Shown here: in pieces, positions 1,635-13,274 of the stretch | How the letters are laid out: every line of letters starts with the position of its first letter | How positions within the stretch are numbered: the stretch's first letter is position 1 | IMG/VR virus record: IMGVR_UViG_3300045994_000756 | Span: 1 to 24,228 of that record | Length of the DNA: 24,228 nucleotides | Direction: 5' to 3' (one strand) | From: a virus | Translations under genes and position numbers: made by a program | Notes under the pieces: model-generated | Databases searched by the model: none | Seen by the model: the letters and a program-made list of their open reading frames with translations, nothing else | Told to the model about the DNA's origin: nothing

Positions 1635-3260
1635 CTATGGGTTGATCTTGAAAGTCGGCACCGCTACACGGTGATCGAAGCGGTACGACTCGACGTTCTG
1701 TCCGGGGTGCCCGCCGTTGTGCTGATAGCTGACCGCGTACAGGAAGTCGCGCCTGTACTGGTTCCACGATTCTTTCTTGACGTGCTTGATCAGCGTGGCC
1801 CGGCGCGTCCAGGTGGAGCCGAAGTCTTTCGACTCATACAGAGCGATGTCGTTGAACGAAGGACCATACAGAGGCCCCTCAGCCACAATGACCTGCAGGT
1901 TCCCGTAGGTCGTCTGTTCGGGGAAGCCGTACATGTGCGCTGGCCACGGCATGTAGTGCGAACTCCACGTCGCCCCCATGTCGCTGGTCGCGAAGAACTT
2001 GTTGTTTGTCGCTGAGGAAGCGGTGCTACTCACGCACAAACCGATGCGCCCGTTCTTGGCGTCGATGATCAGGTCGTTGGGGTAGACCCATGATGCCCCC
2101 GAGGTGATGCCGTCAGGGAACAACTCGCCCACGTTGTAGTTCGGCGGCGAGGGGATGCGGGTCAGCGCGTACAGGTTCGGGCCTGCGAACAGCCGATGCT
2201 CAAGGATGTTGTTCGGCGACCCGGCTTGATCCTTCAGGATGACGAAGGAGACGAAGTACATGTTGCGGAACCAGCGCACGCTGAGCGTGCCACCGGTCAT
2301 GTGCCGGTTGAAGTTCCACGGCGGGGTCGCCGTCGGCGGGCTGGCGGGACAGGCCCACGCGTTCGAGCACCCAGCGAACAGGTACGACAGGTCGATCTCG
2401 GTGTACGTCTCGCCGCTGTCTGTCGAGAGTAGGAAACGCGGCAGCGGCAGGTTGACGTGTGGGTAGCTGGTCGGGTTCGTCAGGTAGGCGCCGTACGCGG
2501 CCGCAGTGACCACGACCAGGTACGTGTCGGGGCGGAGAATTTGGATCGCCCCCACGTCGTAGTTGTACGTGGTGAACGCGGGGATCGTGGCTTGGAGCCA
2601 GCGTACGCCGCGCGCTTTGGCGGTGGCGTCGTCGAGCCGCACCTGGCTCTCTGGCAGCGAGCGATTGCTGCCCGCGAGGAACAGCGCCCATACGATGTTT
2701 CGCTGCTGGCTCTTCCCCCCGACCAGAGTGCGAATGACGCGGGTGTCCTGCGGGGGCGAGAATAGCCCGTCCGGCTGCGGCGTCTGTAGGTACTGCTCGT
2801 AGGTCGGAAACGCGAAGTTCTTCGATGAGGCGTACGCGATCCAGCTGCTTGGGTACCACTGCGTCGTCACCAACAGTCCGCCATTCGACCCCGACGTGAA
2901 CCCGCCGGCCAACGCCGTCTCCGAGGGGAAAGGCCAAGCAGGGTCGTCGGCGACGCCGACGTTGAATCGGGTCTTCTTGAACTGGCTGGTCATCTTGGCC
3001 GCGGCGTATGCCGTGCGGCCGTAGGAGCCCCCGTAGAGGACGCCGGGGTACGGGCCGGCATAGCCCCGCAGCAAAAACTGATCGGTGACTACTTCCGAGC
3101 CGCCCCACTGCCGCACCGACGAGAAGGCATCGCTCTTGCGCGCCTCGGTGTTCGGCGTGATCGCCTGCGCGAACGGCATGTCGAGCTTCTCCAGCGCCCG
3201 CATGTTGGCCAGGCCCTCGGGCGACGTGCCGCCGAACTCCTTGGGGCCGAAGCGGCTCAC
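1635..3260 (-). CDS. BNR/Asp-box beta-propeller virion protein (possible glycan-binding or depolymerase)
   Basis: The protein has 541 aa. Three Asp-box signatures of the S-x-D-x-G-x-T-W type are visible: STDSGETY at 279-286, SDMGATW at 426-432 and SKDFGSTW at 477-484. Such boxes mark beta-hairpins in sialidase-like and other propellers. This suggests a glycan-binding or glycan-degrading propeller, such as a tail-spike or receptor-binding subunit. I cannot identify the full catalytic set of a true sialidase (arginine triad, Tyr/Glu pair), so enzyme activity is unproven. The start is a GTG overlapping the stop of the upstream gene as GTGA, which implies translational coupling. It ends in TAG at 1635, just before the next gene's ribosome site. 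Confidence 0.75.
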   Translation of the reverse strand: MSRFGPKEFGGTSPEGLANMRALEKLDMPFAQAITPNTEARKSDAFSSVRQWGGSEVVTDQFLLRGYAGPYPGVLYGGSYGRTAYAAAKMTSQFKKTRFNVGVADDPAWPFPSETALAGGFTSGSNGGLLVTTQWYPSSWIAYASSKNFAFPTYEQYLQTPQPDGLFSPPQDTRVIRTLVGGKSQQRNIVWALFLAGSNRSLPESQVRLDDATAKARGVRWLQATIPAFTTYNYDVGAIQILRPDTYLVVVTAAAYGAYLTNPTSYPHVNLPLPRFLLSTDSGETYTEIDLSYLFAGCSNAWACPASPPTATPPWNFNRHMTGGTLSVRWFRNMYFVSFVILKDQAGSPNNILEHRLFAGPNLYALTRIPSPPNYNVGELFPDGITSGASWVYPNDLIIDAKNGRIGLCVSSTASSATNNKFFATSDMGATWSSHYMPWPAHMYGFPEQTTYGNLQVIVAEGPLYGPSFNDIALYESKDFGSTWTRRATLIKHVKKESWNQYRRDFLYAVSYQHNGGHPGQNVESYRFDHRVAVPTFKINP

Positions 3261-5266
3261 TTGATCCGCCGCGACGAGTCCACCGACATCAGCTCGGCGC
3301 CGGCCAACTCGAAGTCGGCGCCAGCGTCGTTGATGATCTCGAACTGCATGTAGTTCGCCTTGAGCCCGCGGCCCACGTCGATGCGCTGCTGCTGCATCGC
3401 GGTGTCGCTGCGCCGCGCGTCGTAGGTGTAGGCGTTGCCCTTGTCGTCGGTGACGCGCAGCTGCATCGTGCCGTAGCTGCTCACGCTCATGTACGCGGAC
3501 TCAAGGCGCTTGAGCATCTTCGAGCCGAAGTCCATCCGGCCCATGTTCACGTTGGCGGTGATCGGGGTGCCGGCATCAGTGTCGCCGTCGAGTTCGTAGA
3601 TGCCGTCGCTGCGCACGCCGTAGTAGGTGCCGCCGATCTTCGCGTAGCTGTTGAAGTTGAAGTTCTCGTAGCGCGCGCTTGCGCCGGTCTCGACGTTCAC
3701 GACCCAGACCTGGCCGGCAGCGCGCGACTGGCTGTCGATTGACGTGGCGCCGATCACGGAGTTCATTACGGCGTTCAACACCGACGTGCTCGTCAAGCTA
3801 GAGCTGGCGTCGATGGACGAGAGAGCTGCGGCGTCAATCACCGGCGTCACCGACCCGAACGAGGTGACCGTGCCCGCACTGTCCATGTAGACGACGATGA
3901 ACGTGGCGGCGCTCACGGTCGGGAAGACCCCCAGCACCGCGCCCAGGGTCGTGGTGCGGGTGACGCCGCTCAGCGGTGTGCCGCCGGGCGAGACCCCACC
4001 CGCGTCGGCGATGATGTCGGAGAAGTTAATGCCGCCCGCCGAGGCCCGGAACACCGGCAGCTGCAGGTCGGCGGCGGCATACTCACGCCCACCAAACACC
4101 GCGAACGGGAGCAGGCCCAGACCCGCGTCGCCCTGCCCCGACTGCGCCGAGCTTCCGAGCCCGATGGCCTGGAAAGCGTAGAGCATGACGTTGCCGGCGC
4201 TGTACGTCGGCACTGGTAGCGCCACAGGGTGCCCTGCGCTGCCCGCGCCGGCCCCAACAACGAACAGCCGCGAGAGGCTCAGGGCCGCAACCGCTGAGGT
4301 CTTGCCGGCTGTCACCGAGAACGGCTGCAGCGGCATGGTCGTGTTGACGGCGAAGTTGCCGCCCGCCACGAAGAGCGGCATCAGCGCGCTCTGGCTCGAA
4401 CCCATCACGTAGTCGGGGCCGGCGACCGCGACAGTCCCTGCCGCATCAAACAGGCTGATGATCGGCGTGTGCACAACGTCGGTCGACGCGTACAGGTGGG
4501 CGCGGATGTAGAGCTGTCGAATCGGGCCGGCACGCCGGCGCGTGGACAGGTAGACGTTGTAGCGCGGGTACGCGTCGCCAGATGCGGCGACCCAGTACAC
4601 CGGCTGGCTCCCGACGACCTCGATACCGAGGCGCATGCCGACCGCCGAGAGGTACGCCGGAAGCGTGTACATGATCTGACCGTTTTCCCAGACCTGCGCG
4701 GTGCTCCCGTGCACGTACCAGCCCCACGTGATCGTGCTCGGGTCGGACAGCGGGTCGCCGCCACTGCCGCCCCCGCCTGGCGCAAACCAGTCAGGGACGC
4801 CGCAGACGATCCCGAGGGGGGACGGGTCGAAGGAAAAACTCATCTCGCCCGTGAGAAACCCGGCTACGGAGATGGCGTGTGCGGCCCACCCGAAGTTGTT
4901 CACTGTCGGGGTGTCGACGACCGTCGTCGTCCCGCCGAGCGTGCCCGGCGTACCCGGCGTCGGCGGTACTGCCGGCACGGCGGCGTGGTAGACGAGCGTC
5001 GTAACGTCGGCGCAAGAGTAGACCGGCACGCTTGGGAGGAACGTGGTCGAGCCTGCGTCGCTCCCGTTGCCTGATGTGACGGCAAGCGTGGCCGACGGGT
5101 ACGAGAAACCGCAGACGTTGGTCGTGACCGCGCTCGTGTACGCGGGCACGGCTGGGGAGCCGGGGAACCCCGGCGTGCCGGGCACGCCGGGGGTTGTCGT
5201 GACGCTTGAGCCTTGCCCGACCAAGCTGCGCTTGTTGAGCGCGTTGTGACGAGCGAGGGTCGTCAT
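3257..5266 (-). CDS. Large tail/fibre-associated protein with collagen-like motifs
   Basis: The protein has 669 aa. The N-terminus carries short collagen-like Gly-X-Y runs: PGVPGTPGFPGSP at about 26-38 and PPTPGTPGTLGG at about 101-112. A Gly/Ser linker lies near 165-172. The middle is beta-rich and low in charge. The C-terminal ~150 residues form a distinct Tyr/Gly/Asp-rich region (for example YYGVRSDGIYELDGDTD, then GADFELAGAELMSVDSSRRI near the end); to my memory it recurs at the C-terminus of phage virion proteins annotated only as hypothetical. Together this suggests a trimeric tail or fibre component. It follows the previous gene by 2 bases and overlaps the next gene by 4. Confidence 0.8.
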   Translation of the reverse strand: MTTLARHNALNKRSLVGQGSSVTTTPGVPGTPGFPGSPAVPAYTSAVTTNVCGFSYPSATLAVTSGNGSDAGSTTFLPSVPVYSCADVTTLVYHAAVPAVPPTPGTPGTLGGTTTVVDTPTVNNFGWAAHAISVAGFLTGEMSFSFDPSPLGIVCGVPDWFAPGGGGSGGDPLSDPSTITWGWYVHGSTAQVWENGQIMYTLPAYLSAVGMRLGIEVVGSQPVYWVAASGDAYPRYNVYLSTRRRAGPIRQLYIRAHLYASTDVVHTPIISLFDAAGTVAVAGPDYVMGSSQSALMPLFVAGGNFAVNTTMPLQPFSVTAGKTSAVAALSLSRLFVVGAGAGSAGHPVALPVPTYSAGNVMLYAFQAIGLGSSAQSGQGDAGLGLLPFAVFGGREYAAADLQLPVFRASAGGINFSDIIADAGGVSPGGTPLSGVTRTTTLGAVLGVFPTVSAATFIVVYMDSAGTVTSFGSVTPVIDAAALSSIDASSSLTSTSVLNAVMNSVIGATSIDSQSRAAGQVWVVNVETGASARYENFNFNSYAKIGGTYYGVRSDGIYELDGDTDAGTPITANVNMGRMDFGSKMLKRLESAYMSVSSYGTMQLRVTDDKGNAYTYDARRSDTAMQQQRIDVGRGLKANYMQFEIINDAGADFELAGAELMSVDSSRRIK

Positions 5267-5268
5267 GG

Positions 5269-5712
5269 TTACGCCGTCGGCTGGCCGATCTGGAAGAAGT
5301 CGATGACTTGCGTCACGGCTGCGACGAGGGCAGCGGAGGTCAGGTTCAAGTCGCCGCCGACGGTGGCGATCGAGCCCTGCAGCCGCAGCGCCGTGGTGCT
5401 CAGCGCGTCGGTGTCACCAGTCATCTTCCAACGGAAGAATGTCGCGGTGCCGTTCGCGGCGTTCACCCCGCTCCACACCTCGCCGGGCGTTTTCGACAGT
5501 ACGCCAGCGACGGCGGGCGTCGAGAACGTGAGGCCGGTCGCGCCGCTGGCGTTCGAGATCGTGCTCAGTAGCGTGGCCGCGCCGAGCGCAGCGTCTGCGT
5601 CGACCGGCGGCGTGCCGGAGTAGAGGTAGAGCTTGCCGAGGGTCAGCAGCGAGTTGAGCGAGCCGGTCGACAGAATGCCGTTGCGCACGCCGGTGGATGC
5701 TTTCAGTGCCAT
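5269..5712 (-). CDS. Small virion protein, distant paralogue of the 10.6-11.4 kb pair
   Basis: The protein has 147 aa. Its layout resembles the two tandem proteins near 11 kb: a short N-terminal motif (STGVRNGIL here; AAVRNGMLD and VAVRNARLD there), then a strand with LYSGTPP (LSGAPP, RTGAAP), a G-T-A-aromatic strand, and a C-terminal GG/TGxDxxxxxxA segment. It therefore appears to be a third, diverged member of one small beta-rich virion family. The start follows AAGGAACCACC and palindromic motif copy B, so it probably begins a transcription or translation unit. Role unknown; a minor tail or neck component is likely from context. Confidence 0.75.
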   Translation of the reverse strand: MALKASTGVRNGILSTGSLNSLLTLGKLYLYSGTPPVDADAALGAATLLSTISNASGATGLTFSTPAVAGVLSKTPGEVWSGVNAANGTATFFRWKMTGDTDALSTTALRLQGSIATVGGDLNLTSAALVAAVTQVIDFFQIGQPTA

Positions 5713-7524: not shown

Positions 7525-7551
7525 CGATTCTATGTTAGATCGAACTTCGAT
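7525..7551 (-). promoter_or_regulatory. Intergenic palindromic motif, copy C
   Basis: The minus strand reads AATCGAAGTTCGATCTAAC followed by ATAGAATCG. It contains a perfect palindrome ATCGAA-G-TTCGAT interleaved with a perfect left half-site TTCGATCTAA and a damaged right half-site. It touches the upstream TAA (7551-7553) and ends 5 bases before the ATG at 7520. Confidence 0.65.
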
Positions 7552-7859
7552 TACCGCTCGACGATCTGCAGGAAGATCGTGCGGTCTTCGGTGCGCCCGC
7601 CGGCCGTGGTGATGCGGCAGGTCAACGACTCCAACGCGCCAAGCACGCCCCCGGAGATGAACGCCGTGGCCGACGTGCCGGTGAACGACTGCGACACGAT
7701 CGTGAGCCCTACGCTCTTGACCCAGGTGACCGAAGCGATGGTGTCGGTCACGATCGCAAGCCAGGGAGCCCAGTTGAACGAGTAGTCGAGCGTCGCGTTC
7801 GGGTCTTTCTTGATCTTCGCCTTGCCGGCGCTGACGACATAAGTCTCGGTGGTGGCCAT
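7551..7859 (-). CDS. Fibre/tail adaptor-like small protein
   Basis: The protein has 102 aa and starts at an ATG after AGGAACCACC. It begins TETYVVSAGKAKIKKDPNAT and then looks like a single Ig-like beta sandwich: SFNWAPWLA, alternating strands with VTWVKSVGLTIVSQS, and a final strand CRITTAGGRTEDRTIFLQI. Small proteins with this pattern are, to my knowledge, annotated as phage fibre-tail adaptors in related virion operons. Its place directly after the repeat-rich adhesin gene (8-base gap) supports a role in joining that fibre to the tail. It ends in TAA, just before motif copy C. Confidence 0.65.
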   Translation of the reverse strand: MATTETYVVSAGKAKIKKDPNATLDYSFNWAPWLAIVTDTIASVTWVKSVGLTIVSQSFTGTSATAFISGGVLGALESLTCRITTAGGRTEDRTIFLQIVER

Positions 7860-7867
7860 GGTGGTTC

Positions 7868-9766
7868 CTAGTTCACGAAGTTGGTGTGGTTGACGGCCGG
7901 CGTGAGATGACGCCGGTCTTCGGCGTTAGGCATCGCGCGCCGGCTCTCAGCGTCAGGTGCGAACGAGCGCTGCTCGGCGCTGAGCGTCGTGCGTCGACTC
8001 TCGGCGCTGGGGGCATACGTGCGCTGCTCGGCGCCGAGCGTGTAGGTGCGCTCGTTGGCGACGAAGAACAGCGCCGCGCCGTTTTGCATCGACGCGAATT
8101 GTGTGAACGCCGGCATCGCCTGCACGGCGCTCAGGACGATCTTCGAGACAGCCGAAGCAGTTTGGCCAAATGCGGGCAGCGTCTGGCTGGCCGTGGCGAC
8201 ACGCGCAGCCACGGCGGGCACAGTAGCCGTGGCTGTCTGGCCGAATGCTGGCAGGGTCTGCGCGGCCGTGGCGGCCACACGCGCCGCCGCTGTGGCAGTC
8301 TGACCAAAAGCCGGCAGTGTTTGTGCGCCGGTCACCGTGACCCTGACCGTCGCGGTGGCGGTCTGACTGAACGCCGGCAGCGTCTGCGCGGCATTGATCA
8401 CAGCGCTGCCCGCCGCGATCAGGGCGGCGTTGGCTGTCTGTCCGAACGCCGGCAATGTCTGCGCGGCGTTGAGCGAAGCGATGGCGGCGGCCGTAGCGGT
8501 TTGGCTGAAGGTCGGCAGTGTCTGTGCCGCGGTCAACCCCGCGCGCGAGACGACCGTAGCAGCCTGACTGAAGGCCGGCAGGGTCTGCGCGGCGGTGATC
8601 GCCGCGGGTGCGGCCGCCGCGCTGGCCGTGGCGGTTTGACCAAACGCCGGCAGCGTCTGGGCAGCATTGAGCTTGCCGATCAAGGCGCCCGTGCTCGCGA
8701 CTGTCGCACCAGCCAGCGTGCTCGCAACTGTTGCGGCGATGTTGAGCTTTGCAGCGCTCGTCACCGTCGCGTCGGCCAGCGTTGCGCTCAGCGTGCCGCT
8801 GGCCGATGCTGAGCCGGCAAATGGCGTCTGGTACGTGACAACCAGGGCCGGGCCGTAGCCGTTGCCGGGGGCGCCCTCAACTGCAAAGATTGCGCGGTCG
8901 CCGGGCGTGTCGTTCTCAACACGCAGCATCAAGCCGTAGTTGGCGAACGTGCCGTTGATCCAGCCTTCGACCGTCTTGTTCAGGTTCGAGTTGCCGAGCA
9001 ACCACTCGACTCCGAAGGCCAAGTGCGGGATGTCGGCGACGAACACGGGCTCGGGGTCGATGTCGCCGGAGCCGAGCGCTCCCGGCGTCGTCCAGGCGTT
9101 CGTGCCGTCGTAGGTGTCCCAGGTCAGTCCGCCCTGAGTCCAGTTACGCAGCAGACGATAGGCCGACACGCGTTGGGTGCCCGCCGTGTCGTTGGTGTAT
9201 CCGGTCAGGCGCAGTTCGGTCGTGACAACATCCCGGCCGACAGGCAGGTTGCTGAGGCCGGCGAAACGGAGGAAGTAATTCCCGAAGTAGCCCGCGACTG
9301 AGTCGTTCGAGAAGTACAGCTCAAAGTTCGCGCCGAAGTTCGTCGTCGGGCTGCTGCTGAAGGCCGTCGTGTCGATGACGCCGACGAAGCCGCCGATGTA
9401 GCCGCCCTGGGTGTTCTCAGAGATGATGGCAGTGGTCGGGCTGACGCTCTGGTGGATCGCTTTCGCGCTCAGGGTGGCATCGGCCAGCGTGGCGGTCACC
9501 GTGCCGGAGATCGGCGTCAGCGGGAGCGTTCCGGTCGCCGCTACCGTCGCGCCAGCCAGCGTAGCGGTGACGGTGCCCTTGATGTTGAGCGCGCCGGTCG
9601 CCGCTACCGTCGCGCCTGCGAGCGCGACGTTGAGCGTGCCGATGCGGGTTGGTGTCGTTGCGGCTGGCCAGAACTCCGCACCCGCGATCACACTCGCTGC
9701 CGAGCCGCGGCTCGACCTGACGATCTCGGTCGTCTGGAGACCGCGGCGCCGGAACGCTTTGCCCAC
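7868..9766 (-). CDS. Repeat-rich DNRLRE adhesin/tail-fibre protein
   Basis: The protein has 632 aa, reads from a GTG at 9766, and ends in TAG. Order of modules: basic N-terminus (1-20); three LAGATVAATG-type repeats (43-103); a DNRLRE/CBM96-like beta domain (about 115-315, with LRFAGLSNLPVG, TTELRLTGYTND, SAYRLLRNWTQGGLTWDTYDG and GLMLRVEN); two more ATL-type repeats (320-365); eight copies plus one degenerate copy of an AAQTLPAFGQTATA repeat (366-562); and a charged C-terminus of AExRR repeats (570-621). DNRLRE domains are carbohydrate-associated in other proteins. I infer a fibre or adhesin whose repeats form a stalk. The repeats flank the globular domain on both sides, as if it was inserted into an array. 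Confidence 0.75.
   Translation of the reverse strand: MGKAFRRRGLQTTEIVRSSRGSAASVIAGAEFWPAATTPTRIGTLNVALAGATVAATGALNIKGTVTATLAGATVAATGTLPLTPISGTVTATLADATLSAKAIHQSVSPTTAIISENTQGGYIGGFVGVIDTTAFSSSPTTNFGANFELYFSNDSVAGYFGNYFLRFAGLSNLPVGRDVVTTELRLTGYTNDTAGTQRVSAYRLLRNWTQGGLTWDTYDGTNAWTTPGALGSGDIDPEPVFVADIPHLAFGVEWLLGNSNLNKTVEGWINGTFANYGLMLRVENDTPGDRAIFAVEGAPGNGYGPALVVTYQTPFAGSASASGTLSATLADATVTSAAKLNIAATVASTLAGATVASTGALIGKLNAAQTLPAFGQTATASAAAAPAAITAAQTLPAFSQAATVVSRAGLTAAQTLPTFSQTATAAAIASLNAAQTLPAFGQTANAALIAAGSAVINAAQTLPAFSQTATATVRVTVTGAQTLPAFGQTATAAARVAATAAQTLPAFGQTATATVPAVAARVATASQTLPAFGQTASAVSKIVLSAVQAMPAFTQFASMQNGAALFFVANERTYTLGAEQRTYAPSAESRRTTLSAEQRSFAPDAESRRAMPNAEDRRHLTPAVNHTNFVN
7904..8059 (-). 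repeat. C-terminal AExRR repeats of the adhesin
   Basis: Residues 570-621 of the adhesin repeat an 8-10 residue unit, for example ERTYTLGAEQ, RTYAPSAESR, RTTLSAEQ, RSFAPDAESR and RAMPNAEDR. The pattern is charged and strand-forming, unlike the Ala/Thr repeats before it. It may be the docking segment for the small adaptor encoded next. Confidence 0.7.
8081..8671 (-). repeat. Nine-copy QTLPAFGQTA coding repeat
   Basis: Nine in-frame units of about 21-25 codons each encode AAQTLPAFGQTATA followed by a variable Ala/Val/Ile-rich spacer. Eight units keep the QTLP-(A/T)-F-(G/S)-Q core and the ninth is degenerate (VQAMPAFTQFAS). Synonymous codons differ between copies at the DNA level, so the repeat is old or under protein-level selection rather than a fresh slippage product. 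Confidence 0.85.
8672..8809 (-). repeat. ATL-type coding repeats, second block
   Basis: Two units of the form LSATLADATVTSAAKLN and ASTLAGATVASTGAL follow the DNRLRE-like domain. They match the block at 9458-9640 on the other side of that domain. Confidence 0.75.
9458..9640 (-). repeat. ATL-type coding repeats, first block
   Basis: Three units of about 20 residues (NVALAGATVAATGALN, TATLAGATVAATGTLP, TATLADATLSAKA) precede the DNRLRE-like domain. They are homologous to the second block at 8672-8809. Confidence 0.75.
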
Positions 9767-9771
9767 GCGCG

Positions 9772-10569
9772 CTACCCGTTAACGACTTCGCACACCAGCT
9801 CGAAGATGCCTGTCGCCGCGGCGTCCGGCTGCACGAGCGCCATCAGGGCGCTGCTGGTATAGATTTCCGGCATGCCGGTCTTCAGGAAGTCGTGCGTGTC
9901 GCCGAAGTTCGCGATGGGCACGCGGCCGCTCCACAAGCGGCGCAGCACCAGCACGTTGAACGTGCCGACCGTCGCGACCGTGCTGGTCACCGACTCGATC
10001 TTCTGCACGCCCGTGTCGCCGGCCTGCAGCGGCAGCTGCAGCATGCGGCCGACGATGGGCGCGACGCCGGTGGCGATCACGCCCGTGGTGCGCGCCGCGA
10101 CGCCGCTCTGGTTCGTGTACGTGACGGCGATGGACTGATTGCCCGTGAACGCCGTGACGGCTTCGATCCAGATTTCCGTGTTCGTGAAGTCAGTGCCGCC
10201 GATCACACGCGTGCTGTAGCTCGGCTGCGTGGCGAGCGTGGTCGCGGCGTTGAAGGCGTAAGCCCCGGCTTTGAACAGGCAGTCGAAGAGCGCGATGCGA
10301 CACGCCACCGTGGATCCAAAAGAGATGCCGGCGATGTAGCCGGTAGCGGCGCCGCCGAAGGCGTTGATGACTGGGAAGCCGGCGTCCGCGTCCGTGGGTA
10401 CGAGACCGTTGGCCGTGTTCGTGCCGGCGAGCACACCCGCGCCGGGGTTGCCAGCGGCTTGCAGCACCTGCGTGACCGCCAGGGCAACAGCCGTCACGCT
10501 CGCGGTCTTGATGATCTGCACGCGTTGGCTGGGCGCCGCGATCAGACCGTCGAGCGTGATGATGGCCAT
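9772..10569 (-). CDS. Conserved-looking virion protein, 265 aa
   Basis: The ATG overlaps the upstream TAA by one base (TAATG) and follows an AAGGGA site. The product begins MAIITLDGLIAAPSQRVQIIKTASVTAVA and alternates short helices and strands. A Gly/Ala-rich central part and a C-terminal segment (RRLWSGRVPIANFGDTHDFLKTG) precede a final strand ending FELVCEVVNG. No catalytic motif or membrane segment is clear. It lies between the paralogue pair and the repeat adhesin, so a tail-tip, baseplate-like or fibre-attachment role is plausible. I do not recognise the family. It ends in TAG, with the next gene starting 5 bases on. Confidence 0.75.
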   Translation of the reverse strand: MAIITLDGLIAAPSQRVQIIKTASVTAVALAVTQVLQAAGNPGAGVLAGTNTANGLVPTDADAGFPVINAFGGAATGYIAGISFGSTVACRIALFDCLFKAGAYAFNAATTLATQPSYSTRVIGGTDFTNTEIWIEAVTAFTGNQSIAVTYTNQSGVAARTTGVIATGVAPIVGRMLQLPLQAGDTGVQKIESVTSTVATVGTFNVLVLRRLWSGRVPIANFGDTHDFLKTGMPEIYTSSALMALVQPDAAATGIFELVCEVVNG

Positions 10570-10970
10570 TACGCGTTCCCTTCCGTCAGCGTCAGCGCGG
10601 TCACGTTAAAGATCTGAGCGACGGCAAACACGGCGTTGTCGACGATCATGTCGGTGCCGGTCGTGCCGACCGTGCCCTGCCAGTGACACGTGGTGCCGGC
10701 CGAGTCGTAGATGCGGAAGTGCGCGGCGGTGCCGGCGGCGTCGGCAGATGGGTCGGTCCAGGTGCCTGCGAGTGTTTTCGTACCGCCCGAGGCTGCAGCC
10801 AGCCAGTCCGACGGCAGGGTCAGCGTGGCGAGCACGGTGCCTGTATCGGCCGCGGCGCAGTTGGCCGGCGCGGCGCCGGTGCGGATGCGCATGATCGGCG
10901 TGACGCCAACGGCCGACTCGGTGGCGTCGAGGCGGGCGTTTCGGACAGCGACGGAGAACTGCAGCGCCAT
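10569..10970 (-). CDS. Small virion protein, tandem paralogue 2
   Basis: The protein has 133 aa, starts after a GGGAG site, and follows its paralogue by 1 base. It shares with the protein encoded just upstream the N-terminal VRNARLD motif, the RTGAAPANCA segment, and a near-identical C-terminal part (DSAGTTCHWQGTVGTTGTDM then IVDNAVFAVAQ). Both are 133 residues, so this is a tandem duplication. The paired Cys residues (in PANC and TTCH) are conserved between the copies. Beta-rich, no signal peptide; a minor structural component is likely. Function unknown. Confidence 0.8.
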   Translation of the reverse strand: MALQFSVAVRNARLDATESAVGVTPIMRIRTGAAPANCAAADTGTVLATLTLPSDWLAAASGGTKTLAGTWTDPSADAAGTAAHFRIYDSAGTTCHWQGTVGTTGTDMIVDNAVFAVAQIFNVTALTLTEGNA

Positions 10971-10971
10971 A

Positions 10972-11373
10972 TCAGGCTCCCGGTGCGGTCTTGCTGAAGG
11001 CCGTGACCTGCACGGTCTGCGACAGGGCGATCACCGCGTTGTCGATGATCATGTCGGTGCCCGTCGTGCCCACGGTGCCCTGCTCGTGGCACGTGGTGCC
11101 AGCGCTGTCGACGAAGCGGTAGTAGCCCGCTGTGCCGGCCGCAAGCCCGGTCGAGCTGAGCGGCAGAGAACTCAGCGCCTTTGCTCCTGCGGACGCGGCT
11201 GCGGCCCAGTCGGCGGCCAAGGTGTACTCGACCAGCAGCGTGCCGGTCTGCGCCGTGGCGCAGTTGGCCGGCGGCGCACCGCTCAGGATGCGGAGCTTGG
11301 CCGAGGCGCCCATGGTGGTCTCGATGGAATCGAGCATGCCGTTGCGGACGGCGGCCGAGAATTGGACAGTCAT
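10972..11373 (-). CDS. Small virion protein, tandem paralogue 1
   Basis: The protein has 133 aa and begins MTVQFSAAVRNGMLDSIET. The start has AAGGAAG upstream, provided by palindromic motif copy D, so this gene opens the block that runs on to the adhesin. It is homologous to the next gene along its whole length (LSGAPPANCA; DSAGTTCHEQGTVGTTGTDM; IIDNAVIALSQ) and more distantly to the 147-aa protein at 5269-5712. The family looks like a compact beta sandwich. Role unknown. Confidence 0.8.
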   Translation of the reverse strand: MTVQFSAAVRNGMLDSIETTMGASAKLRILSGAPPANCATAQTGTLLVEYTLAADWAAAASAGAKALSSLPLSSTGLAAGTAGYYRFVDSAGTTCHEQGTVGTTGTDMIIDNAVIALSQTVQVTAFSKTAPGA

Positions 11374-11400: not shown

Positions 11401-12055
11401 GCCCGCCGTACGCGGTAACGCCGCGAGCGCGACGCGCACGTTCCTGTTCGAGCTTGGCTCTGTCGCAGTACGCTACGAACCGTGCCGCGAAGTCGTCGGA
11501 CTTGCGACGGTCGAAGGTCTCGGCGTCTTGCTTGTCGTAGGCGCGGTGCTTCATCCACAGCAGCAGGCCGAGGTGATGCATCGCGTCGATCTCGAAGGCC
11601 TGCTCGCCCGCATCCGTGATCGGCAGCAGCGGCAGGCGGCAGACCGACAGGTTCAGCGTCACGGTCTCGTTGGGCATCGGGTGGATGCGCACGGCGTGGG
11701 GCTCGAGCCCCAGCACCACGTGCTTGACCAGGCCGAGCTGCGTGGCCAGAAAGTACAGCCCGCGCCTGTCGGCCTGCTCAGCGGTGAGCAGCTCGACTTC
11801 GCGGCCAGTGTCGGCGCGCGTGGCCTTGCGGATGTTCAGGATCGACGCATGAGTCGTGTACCAGTCGGTGCCGGGCACGATGGCGAGCTGAGTCACCACC
11901 GCGGTGCGCGCGTCGATGATGCCGTTCGTCTTGCGGCAGAACTGTTGCTGCGCGTCGTCCTGGAAGCCGAAGACTTCCTCGTCGCTCCACAGGAACGGCG
12001 CTACGGTGTCGCTCATCTCGCTGCGGAAGACGGCGAGCAATTCGCTGGAGTTCAT
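11396..12055 (-). CDS. Head-to-tail adaptor-like protein
   Basis: The protein has 219 aa. It begins MNSSELLAVFRSEMSDTVAPF, then WSDEEVFGFQDDAQQQFCRKT: an all-helical N-terminus typical of phage adaptor (neck) proteins that sit under the portal and bridge to the tail. A beta-containing middle (residues 55-140) and a C-terminal charged helix (KHRAYDKQDAETFDRRKSDDF) complete the pattern. Family assignment is from sequence style and context, since I cannot run a profile search. The start overlaps the Rz gene's stop as ATGA. Its placement just after the lysis cassette rather than beside the portal is unusual. Confidence 0.7.
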   Translation of the reverse strand: MNSSELLAVFRSEMSDTVAPFLWSDEEVFGFQDDAQQQFCRKTNGIIDARTAVVTQLAIVPGTDWYTTHASILNIRKATRADTGREVELLTAEQADRRGLYFLATQLGLVKHVVLGLEPHAVRIHPMPNETVTLNLSVCRLPLLPITDAGEQAFEIDAMHHLGLLLWMKHRAYDKQDAETFDRRKSDDFAARFVAYCDRAKLEQERARRARGVTAYGGL

Positions 12056-12666
12056 GGTGGGGCCACCCCGCCGGAGTTTGCGATGCGAGGCCCCGTGGCG
12101 GTTTGGGAAACGAGGTCGATGATCCCCGCACGAGAGCCCTCAGCCGCCAGAGGAACACCGCTCTCGATCTGGTCGGGCTGCAGGCACGAAGCTCGCACGT
12201 ACCCCTGCAAGCCAATCACTTGGTTGGCGAGGCGTCCTGCATCTCCCGCCACGCTTTCATATCGCTCTGCGCACGCGCCGAGTAGTTGACGATCGTCGGG
12301 GCGAGCATCAATGACGGGTCCGGCTTGGGGTTGCGTGCGGGGGGCTGGGGCACGAGGACTTTGCAGTCGTGTGCGCAGCCGATCAAGCTCGCTGCGAGCG
12401 TCAAGCTCAGCAGCATGTTGAGCTTCTGTGCGGGCAATGTCTTCAACATGGGACTTCTCCGTGGCGGCAATTTTCTTGGCGAACTCGGCGTCGGCCAGCT
12501 TCTTCGCTTCGGCCATGCCCTCGTCGTAGCCGCGTTGCAGCTCGGCTGTGGCCTTGGCCGCGCCGATGTCGCGCTCGTGCTTGACGAACGCAGCAAACGC
12601 TCCGAGCGCGCCGGCAACGACGAGCGCGTAGATCAAGGGCTTGACCCACCAGAGCGTGAGGTTCAC
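12052..12666 (-). CDS. Rz: Rz-like i-spanin
   Basis: The protein has 204 aa and starts with GTG overlapping the endolysin stop as GTGA. An N-terminal membrane anchor (about residues 9-27, IYALVVAGALGAFAAFV) is followed by a long charged coiled coil (about 28-105). This is the layout of inner-membrane spanins, which span the periplasm and fuse inner and outer membranes in the last lysis step. The C-terminal half (Pro-rich, then residues 128-204) is longer than in lambda Rz. The Rz1-like lipoprotein partner is encoded entirely within this gene in another frame (12216-12449), which supports the call. It is downstream of and coupled to the GH19 endolysin. Confidence 0.85.
   Translation of the reverse strand: MNLTLWWVKPLIYALVVAGALGAFAAFVKHERDIGAAKATAELQRGYDEGMAEAKKLADAEFAKKIAATEKSHVEDIARTEAQHAAELDARSELDRLRTRLQSPRAPAPRTQPQAGPVIDARPDDRQLLGACAERYESVAGDAGRLANQVIGLQGYVRASCLQPDQIESGVPLAAEGSRAGIIDLVSQTATGPRIANSGGVAPP
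12216..12449 (-). CDS. Rz1: Rz1-like o-spanin lipoprotein nested in Rz
   Basis: A 77-aa frame lies wholly inside the Rz gene. I choose the ATG at 12449 because GGAG lies 7 bases upstream; the longer open frame before it has no such support. The product has a short basic start, a hydrophobic stretch (MLLSLTLAASLIGC) and a lipobox with LIGC, so Cys25 would be lipidated after signal peptidase II cleavage. The mature part is Pro-rich (VLVPQPPARNPKPDPS), as in Rz1 proteins, which sit in the outer membrane and bind the Rz C-terminus. Full nesting matches the lambda arrangement. Confidence 0.85.
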   Translation of the reverse strand: MLKTLPAQKLNMLLSLTLAASLIGCAHDCKVLVPQPPARNPKPDPSLMLAPTIVNYSARAQSDMKAWREMQDASPTK

Positions 12667-13274
12667 GAGAAAGCCTCCAGCGCCATGGCGGTGCGCCGCT
12701 TGCGGTCGTCGATGCCCAGCAGCTTCGAGTTGATGGCCCGCGTGACCGACTCGACGCTGCCGGTGTCGGCCAGCGAGTTGATGTGCTTGTCTTTCCAGTA
12801 CCAGCCGGCCGTGATGCAGGCGTCACCGGGCAGCGCCACCAGCTCGGGCTGCTCGGCGTACGGCAGGCCGCAGTCGGTGCCGCAGCGTGCGTAGTTGTCG
12901 CGGAACGTGAGCTGAATCAGGCCGCGGCCGCGGTACTTCCAACCGTCGCCGCTCATGGTGTCGCCGTTGCCGAAGCGGTTTGCGTAGACCGTGTTGGCCA
13001 GGGCTTGCGGCTTGCCGACCAGGCTCTGCGCCATGGCCAGGTTGATCACGCGCGTAGGCCAGTTGGCGCGGATGCCTTCAGGCCGGCTGTACCAGAGCGA
13101 CTCTTCCAGGCGCGCGAAACCGCCCGACTCGTGGCCGCACTGCCCAACGAAGTGGGCGACCCGCAGCGGCGTGTTGATCTCGTAGAGGGCACACACCTTC
13201 GCCAGCGGCTCTGCGAAGAGCCGGGCTTGCGTCGGATTGATTCCCGCCGCGATCAAAGTGGCGACGGTGATCAT
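12663..13274 (-). CDS. GH19 chitinase-like endolysin
   Basis: The protein has 203 aa, a single GH19 domain without a peptidoglycan-binding module. The catalytic region is visible: GHESGGF with Glu49 as the likely general acid and ARLEESLWY with Glu58 as the likely second acidic residue. The GH19 signature YRGRGLIQLT is at about 114-123. Phage GH19 enzymes cleave the glycan strands of peptidoglycan. There is no signal peptide or SAR segment, so export to the periplasm should depend on the holin encoded just upstream. It starts 5 bases after the holin-like gene and overlaps Rz by 4 bases, giving the order holin, endolysin, Rz/Rz1. Confidence 0.9.
   Translation of the reverse strand: MITVATLIAAGINPTQARLFAEPLAKVCALYEINTPLRVAHFVGQCGHESGGFARLEESLWYSRPEGIRANWPTRVINLAMAQSLVGKPQALANTVYANRFGNGDTMSGDGWKYRGRGLIQLTFRDNYARCGTDCGLPYAEQPELVALPGDACITAGWYWKDKHINSLADTGSVESVTRAINSKLLGIDDRKRRTAMALEAFS

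What the first reader, a model, noticed from the sequence alone, without database searches (positions are those of the whole stretch)
7868..9766. Modular adhesin with three different repeat types and a domain set inside one array
One gene carries ATL-type repeats, a DNRLRE-like carbohydrate-associated domain, the same ATL repeats again, nine QTLPAFGQTA units and a charged AExRR tail. The DNRLRE-like domain splits the ATL array, which suggests domain insertion. Copy number in the QTLPAF array may vary between relatives and set stalk length.
Basis: seen in the sequence. Interest (0 to 1): 0.58.

Follow-up and report, generated by a model that had tools for sequence, protein, structure and literature searches.

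The report
Phage fibre "rope" carrying sugar-binding domain
The gene most likely encodes a long repetitive string on which a phage threads small bead proteins to build a flexible fibre, with a sugar-binding domain set near its far end; such strings look widespread in phages but have hardly been recognised from sequence.

Summary
Window 7868-9766(-) encodes 632 aa: three 21-aa ATL units, a DNRLRE/CBM96 domain (NCBIfam E=2.9e-17), two more ATL units, nine QTLPAF units and six 9-aa AExR units. Directly downstream is a GP4 gp77-type fibre-tail adaptor (PF23148, E=8.7e-26). Upstream, beyond one unknown gene, are two copies of a small protein homologous to the phage 7-7-1 garland protein (profile E=2.3e-7; fold Z 13.2; weaker fold match, Z 7.2, to GP4 fibre-I gp80). 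Among IMG/VR relatives of that bead, a 20-21-aa-period ORF lies downstream in 19 of 30 loci with enough sequence, and upstream in 1 of 34. Of 35 rope-candidate ORFs scanned, only this one has DNRLRE. A near-identical phage lacks exactly 54 bp, two tail units, between 14-bp direct repeats; the QTLPAF count is unchanged. So copy number does vary, but in the anchor tail. I call it a new variant of a known kind. Not shown: that beads bind the repeats, one bead per unit, or that DNRLRE binds sugar. GP4 gp80 membership by sequence was tested and not met.

The parts
7868..9766 (-). rope-candidate gene, 632 aa
   Evidence: period 21, score 336 vs shuffle max 60 of 100
9653..9766 (-). N-terminal 38 aa, no repeat
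   Evidence: sequence
9452..9640 (-). three ATL-type 21-aa units
8834..9373 (-). DNRLRE/CBM96 domain (residues 132-311)
   Evidence: NF033679 E=2.9e-17; CBM96 E=1.3e-8 on isolated domain; PDB 7vbo, 8wab
8675..8800 (-). two ATL-type units after the domain
8093..8659 (-). nine QTLPAF-type units
7898..8059 (-). six 9-aa AExR units (candidate anchor)
   Evidence: TRF 27-bp period
7981..8034 (-). 54 bp (two tail units) absent from L002; bounded by 14-bp direct repeats at 8021-8034 and 7967-7980
   Evidence: no other difference in the gene
7551..7859 (-). gp77-type fibre-tail adaptor, 102 aa
   Evidence: PF23148 E=8.7e-26; PDB 8jou_D E=0.0035
10972..11373 (-). bead (garland-type) protein, 133 aa
   Evidence: phrog_3758; profile to 44nx_B E=2e-23 and 9rkv_A E=2.3e-7; AF2 pLDDT 90.3, Z 13.2 to 9rkv_A, 7.2 to 8jou_a
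10569..10970 (-). second bead paralogue, 133 aa
   Evidence: phrog_3758 E=1.2e-30; 56% identical to the first
9772..10569 (-). 265-aa protein between beads and rope, no family match
5269..5712 (-). third bead paralogue, 147 aa
   Evidence: phrog_3758 E=9.6e-18

Best explanation
The protein is the central rope of a flexible bead-on-rope virion fibre. Its C-terminal 9-aa AExR array anchors it to the ring made by the gp77-type adaptor encoded next door (inferred). Its 14 units of about 21 aa run outward as an extended chain, each offering a short beta segment that dimers of the small bead protein (10972-11373 and/or 10569-10970) clasp (inferred from GP4 fibre I and the 7-7-1 garland). The DNRLRE/CBM96 domain, between units 3 and 4 and so near the distal end, is a carbohydrate-binding head carried on the rope (domain shown; binding and orientation inferred). 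Unit number would set how many beads the fibre carries.
For: Adjacent adaptor. Beads homologous to a flexible dimeric garland protein and, more weakly by fold, to GP4 gp80. Bead followed by a 20-21-aa-period ORF is a repeated gene order: 19 of 30 loci downstream versus 1 of 34 upstream, Fisher p=1.7e-7, after four duplicates and four hand-listed ORFs were removed. In 7 of the 8 bead loci that have an adaptor hit, a rope-like ORF ends within 30 bp of the adaptor start (the eighth, L054, is an artefact). Pfam gp80 genes lie beside rope candidates in L014, L015, L017, L020. The gp80 (10 chains) and gp77 (3 chains) homologues are in one PDB entry, titled 'Fiber I and fiber-tail-adaptor of phage GP4'. 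Ropes with other repeat sequences and an AExR-like tail precede adaptors in L013, L014, L017, L020, L021.
Against: No direct evidence of bead-rope contact. Window beads are not gp80 by sequence (no PF23140; hhalign prob 0.6%). Eleven of 30 bead loci show no rope by my test. Adaptor neighbours in L016, L018, L035 show no rope; L015, L019 tails are degenerate. Genes near the 7-7-1 garland genes: 104 has no such repeat, 102 only a weak one. Caulobacter phage Seuss has a bead but gp036, the neighbour tested, shows no repeat.
Confidence: 0.62

Rival explanations
1. A homotrimeric fibre whose repeats fold as a beta-spiral or beta-helix stalk by themselves, with DNRLRE as receptor-binding domain; the small proteins are unrelated decoration or connectors.
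For: Repeats of 15-25 aa are common in trimeric shafts (general knowledge); the bead fold also matches neck/connector chains 9mt4_K and 9c39_K (Z 10.8, 10.6), so it is not specific to fibres.
Against: Repeat arrays follow bead genes and precede adaptors in many loci; extreme consensus divergence with constant period suits a clasped chain; the bead sequence profile reaches 9rkv, not the connectors.
Confidence: 0.2
2. A neck or head whisker with a non-receptor role (sensing, retraction, mucus binding), built the same way but not needed for host recognition.
For: Position among head-completion genes (Hc3, SU10 adaptor); in A-1(L) the distal carbohydrate module of the bead-chain neck fibre did not bind the host (PMC10966104 passages).
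Against: Nothing here separates it from a host-binding fibre.
Confidence: 0.35
3. Low-complexity linker expanded by slippage with no bead-binding role; only the DNRLRE domain matters.
For: Exact 54-bp loss between 14-bp repeats shows slippage in the tail.
Against: Period 20-21 is kept across very different sequences and phage groups; QTLPAF units are too diverged at DNA level for recent slippage (TRF 72%).
Confidence: 0.1

Closest known systems
Podophage GP4 fibre I (gp80 dimers on a rope, gp77 adaptor; PDB 8JOU; Zheng 2023, J Mol Biol 435:168258, text not seen, rope recalled)
   Same: gp77-type adaptor next door; small bead gene nearby; repetitive rope-like protein; bead fold similarity Z 7.2
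   Different: Beads are not PF23140 by sequence; two adjacent bead paralogues plus an extra 265-aa gene; DNRLRE inserted; about 14 units
Phage 7-7-1 / Milano garland proteins (PDB 9RKV; Milano gp125/gp127)
   Same: Bead family: profile E=2.3e-7, fold Z 13.2; paralogous pair of bead genes (7-7-1 103 and 105)
   Different: Garland surrounds distal tail fibres of contractile tails; no 21-aa rope found in 7-7-1 gene 104
Cyanophage A-1(L) bead-chain neck fibres (gp82-gp81-gp80)
   Same: Five bead-chain fibres with a carbohydrate-binding module at the tip
   Different: Beads are trimers modelled without a rope
DNRLRE / CBM96 domains (PDB 7VBO, 8WAB)
   Same: HMM above curated cut-offs
   Different: Here inside a phage repeat array, not in a polysaccharide lyase

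Membership tests
GP4 fibre I system | gp77-type fibre-tail adaptor (PF23148) | tested here: met
   E=8.7e-26
GP4 fibre I system | gp80 bead (PF23140) by sequence | tested here: not met
   no hit for 10569, 10972 or 5269; hhalign prob 0.6%
GP4 fibre I system | gp80-like bead fold | tested here: inconclusive
   Z 7.2, rmsd 3.8 over 103, below the Z 8 caution line
GP4 fibre I system | rope threading bead dimers | not testable with these tools
7-7-1 garland protein family (bead only) | sequence homology to garland protein | tested here: met
   9rkv_A E=2.3e-7 by profile
7-7-1 garland protein family (bead only) | garland fold | tested here: met
   Foldseek E=6.2e-6; Z 13.2, 129 aligned
7-7-1 garland protein family (bead only) | homodimer around distal tail fibres | not testable with these tools
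   needs virion structure
DNRLRE / CBM96 | curated HMM above cut-off | tested here: met
DNRLRE / CBM96 | CBM96 fold | tested here: inconclusive
   AF2 pLDDT 60; 7vbo rank 21, E=9e-3, behind TGF-beta-family propeptides
DNRLRE / CBM96 | carbohydrate binding | not testable with these tools
   needs binding assay
Trimeric adhesin/fibre | trimeric shaft | not tested
   no multimer prediction available

The most novel reading that the evidence does not exclude
There is a general class of phage rope proteins, spread over podo-, sipho- and perhaps myophage-like viruses, in which the number of 20-21-aa units is a ruler that fixes how many bead dimers a fibre carries, while domains such as DNRLRE or LamG are swapped in and out of the rope to change what the fibre grips.
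Probability: 0.35. Interest if true: 0.75.

Novelty: new variant of a known kind. Interest (0 to 1): 0.6.

Why it matters
Bead-chain fibres are known from a few cryo-EM structures whose ropes are poorly resolved. A sequence signature (bead gene, 20-21-aa-period rope, 9-aa AExR tail, gp77-type adaptor) would let such fibres be recognised in many unannotated phages, would suggest a candidate for the GP4 rope gene (the gene next to gp80; BcepMigl gp28 type), and makes fibre length testable as a function of repeat number. The 54-bp change shows that these arrays change by whole units in nature.

Tried and rejected
Whole-protein tblastn against 50,697 phage records found nothing. Whole-protein and DNRLRE-only scans of IMG/VR gave only a near-identical phage and one distant DNRLRE protein, L003, not a rope; the Hc3 scan gave only the near-identical phage. 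The domain alone matched one Bacillus phage at 24.5%. F116p51 and the USP_25 protein are the positional equivalents before Hc3 and look repetitive, but F116p51 is borderline by test (46 versus shuffle maximum 36), so not counted. Homology of window beads to gp80 by profile comparison was rejected. The idea that every adaptor neighbour is a rope, written in note 2, is too strong: of nine annotated-phage loci read (L013-L021), five are clear, two degenerate, two negative; L022-L024 were not read for ropes. The DNRLRE model is too poor to use as proof. The DNRLRE scan of genomes gave 25 loci in diverse bacteria and archaea, no donor. In the first count 21 of 30 had downstream repeats; L054 (frame artefact) and L064 10065 (coiled coil, period 21 = 3 heptads) were then removed, with two further coiled-coil or portal-like ORFs listed as drops (L079 8366, L049 1641); L036, L041, L048, L062 were left out as duplicates. 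These drops were made by eye. Literature: nothing on rope sequences found; one paper held both 'DNRLRE domain' and 'phage' (listing only). PDB 44nx could not be described beyond 'Structural protein'.

Full report
The window is a 24,228-base linear virus record. The gene at 7868-9766(-) encodes 632 aa. The described order is present: three ATL units, a DNRLRE domain, two ATL units, nine QTLPAF units, six 9-aa AExR units. Self-similarity at period 21 scores 336 against a maximum of 60 in 100 shuffles. NCBIfam DNRLRE matches residues 132-311 at E=2.9e-17, above its cut-off; Pfam CBM96 matches the isolated domain at E=1.3e-8 but was missed in the whole protein. A ten-sequence profile reaches the solved alginate-binding module 7vbo (E=1.9e-8) and 8wab (E=4.3e-6). 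The AlphaFold model of the domain is poor (pLDDT 60); its Foldseek list is led by TGF-beta-family propeptides, with 7vbo at rank 21.

Context. Directly downstream is a 102-aa gene matching Pfam Gp77, the podophage GP4 fibre-tail adaptor (E=8.7e-26), and weakly the solved chain 8jou_D (E=0.0035). Then comes a head-closure Hc3 protein. Upstream are a 265-aa protein of no known family and two 133-aa phrog_3758 'virion structural' proteins, 56% identical, then an SU10-type adaptor, a spanin-like gene, an endolysin, the major head protein and the portal. A third phrog_3758 gene lies at 5269-5712.

The small proteins. A profile of 35 relatives matches PDB 44nx_B (E=2e-23) and 9rkv_A (E=2.3e-7). The model of 10972-11373 is good (pLDDT 90.3). 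Its best structural match is 9rkv_A (Foldseek E=6.2e-6; Z 13.2, rmsd 2.5 over 129), then neck/connector chains 9mt4_K and 9c39_K (Z 10.8, 10.6) and GP4 fibre-I 8jou_a (Z 7.2, rmsd 3.8 over 103). 9RKV is the tail-fibre model of flagellotropic phage 7-7-1; that paper describes a flexible garland of homodimeric garland proteins around the distal tail fibres (PMC12796354, passages and outline). I identify chain 9rkv_A with the garland protein from its size and copy number; the passages do not name the chain. The Milano paper describes a garland of gp125/gp127 dimers with a fold like T4 gp8 and A511 gp105 (PMC10811340, passages). GP4 gp80 itself is Pfam PF23140; window beads do not match it, and profile-profile comparison is negative (hhalign prob 0.6%). 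So the beads are garland-type by sequence and only possibly gp80-like by fold.

Relatives. Scanning IMG/VR with the bead gave 46 loci. With four near-duplicates left out, an ORF with a clear 19-23-aa period lies downstream of the bead in 19 of 30 loci with at least 3 kb there, and upstream in 1 of 34 with at least 3 kb there (four ORFs dropped by eye as artefacts or coiled coils; the first count was 21 of 30). Many have a consensus close to the window's, e.g. AAAQTLPALTQTA in L039; others are GTKNATLAAATLSGAGTV (L061) or ATSSVTLATVTTSTDV (L055). Eight bead loci carry an adaptor hit; in seven a rope-like ORF ends within 30 bp of the adaptor start, the eighth (L054) being an artefact. Scanning with the adaptor gave 11 loci; nine show a rope-like neighbour, two of these being the near-identical phage L025 and the duplicate L027, with L028 weak; L034 and L035 are not clear. 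In annotated phages, five of nine adaptor loci read (Mae-JY22, Lacusarx, DSL-LC06, BcepMigl, BcepIL02) have repeats followed by an AExR-like 9-aa tail; two (CRP-345, BobsGarage) are degenerate; Moosehead and Shagrat do not show it. Bead genes of the gp80 kind accompany four cassettes tested by Pfam and seven by my profile, of which six were in the profile itself. Pan4, Papyrus and Charlie also pair a bead with a period 20-21 protein (686 vs 121, 154 vs 55, 149 vs 50, score versus shuffle maximum), while Seuss gp036 and 7-7-1 gene 104 do not.

Variation. The closest phage (L002, IMGVR_UViG_3300045743_000610) is 99.8-99.95% identical over the compared 11.5 kb. Its rope differs only by absence of 54 bp, two tail units, bounded by the 14-bp direct repeat GCGCCGAGCAGCGC; this fits slippage or recombination between repeats, in either direction. 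All nine QTLPAF units are kept. L031 and L032, more distant from each other (73% alignment identity), differ by several indels in their arrays. DNRLRE occurs in 1 of 35 rope-candidate ORFs scanned and LamG in 4 of 35; a few of the 35 are probably not true ropes. This suits a rope whose carried domains are exchanged, but no empty-site relative was found.

Mechanism. Shown: domain order, gene order, bead homology, adaptor homology, tail copy change. Inferred: the AExR tail docks on the adaptor; each 21-aa unit is an extended segment clasped by a bead dimer (21 aa extended is about 70 Angstrom, room for one small dimer; general knowledge); the DNRLRE domain projects near the distal end. GP4 is recalled to have five gp80 dimers per fibre; the rope of its relative BcepMigl has about seven units by eye, so a strict one-to-one rule is not shown. 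I recalled the GP4 rope from the abstract of Zheng 2023, of which I saw only the citation. The library search found no paper on rope sequences.

Verdict. The finding is real and more interesting for its context than as an adhesin: it marks a bead-on-rope fibre with an inserted sugar-binding domain, a new variant of a known kind, and points to a wider, little-described class of rope proteins.

Noticed in passing
window 5269-5712 and 3257-5266 (-): A third bead paralogue sits directly before a 669-aa protein whose C-terminal part matches phrog_26502; two ORFs in the rope-candidate set also match phrog_26502. Possibly a second bead fibre, but the 669-aa protein has no obvious 21-aa array by eye.
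   Followed up: partly
window 1635-3260 (-): 541-aa protein with several Asp-box-like motifs (DSGETYTEI, DMGATWSS, DFGSTWTRR), as in sialidase-type propellers (recalled motif); no PHROG match.
   Followed up: no
window 12052-13274 (-): Lysis genes (spanin-like and GH19-type endolysin) lie inside the structural module, between the major head protein and the SU10-type adaptor.
   Followed up: no
L056 7728-8897: A GTA-type baseplate hub protein (TIGR02218/PF09356 assigned to it by inference from set-level hits) carries about five QTVPDFTQ-type units, as if a rope segment were fused into the hub.
   Followed up: partly
L029 1712-5971: A 1419-aa rope candidate with dozens of TATAYGATVAVKPNAG units and an AExR tail directly before the adaptor.
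   Followed up: partly
window rope, residues 370-558: QTLPAF spacing follows a 24/25-21-21 pattern, a higher-order unit of three (66-67 aa) that also shows in the self-comparison.
   Followed up: partly
L108 4602-6365 (phage 7-7-1 gene 102): The putative tail fibre next to the two garland genes has a weak period-20 signal (59 versus shuffle maximum 34).
   Followed up: no
window 8799-9457 (-), DNRLRE domain: Both Pfam and Foldseek point weakly to TGF-beta-family propeptides, suggesting that DNRLRE and these propeptides share a beta-sandwich arrangement.
   Followed up: no
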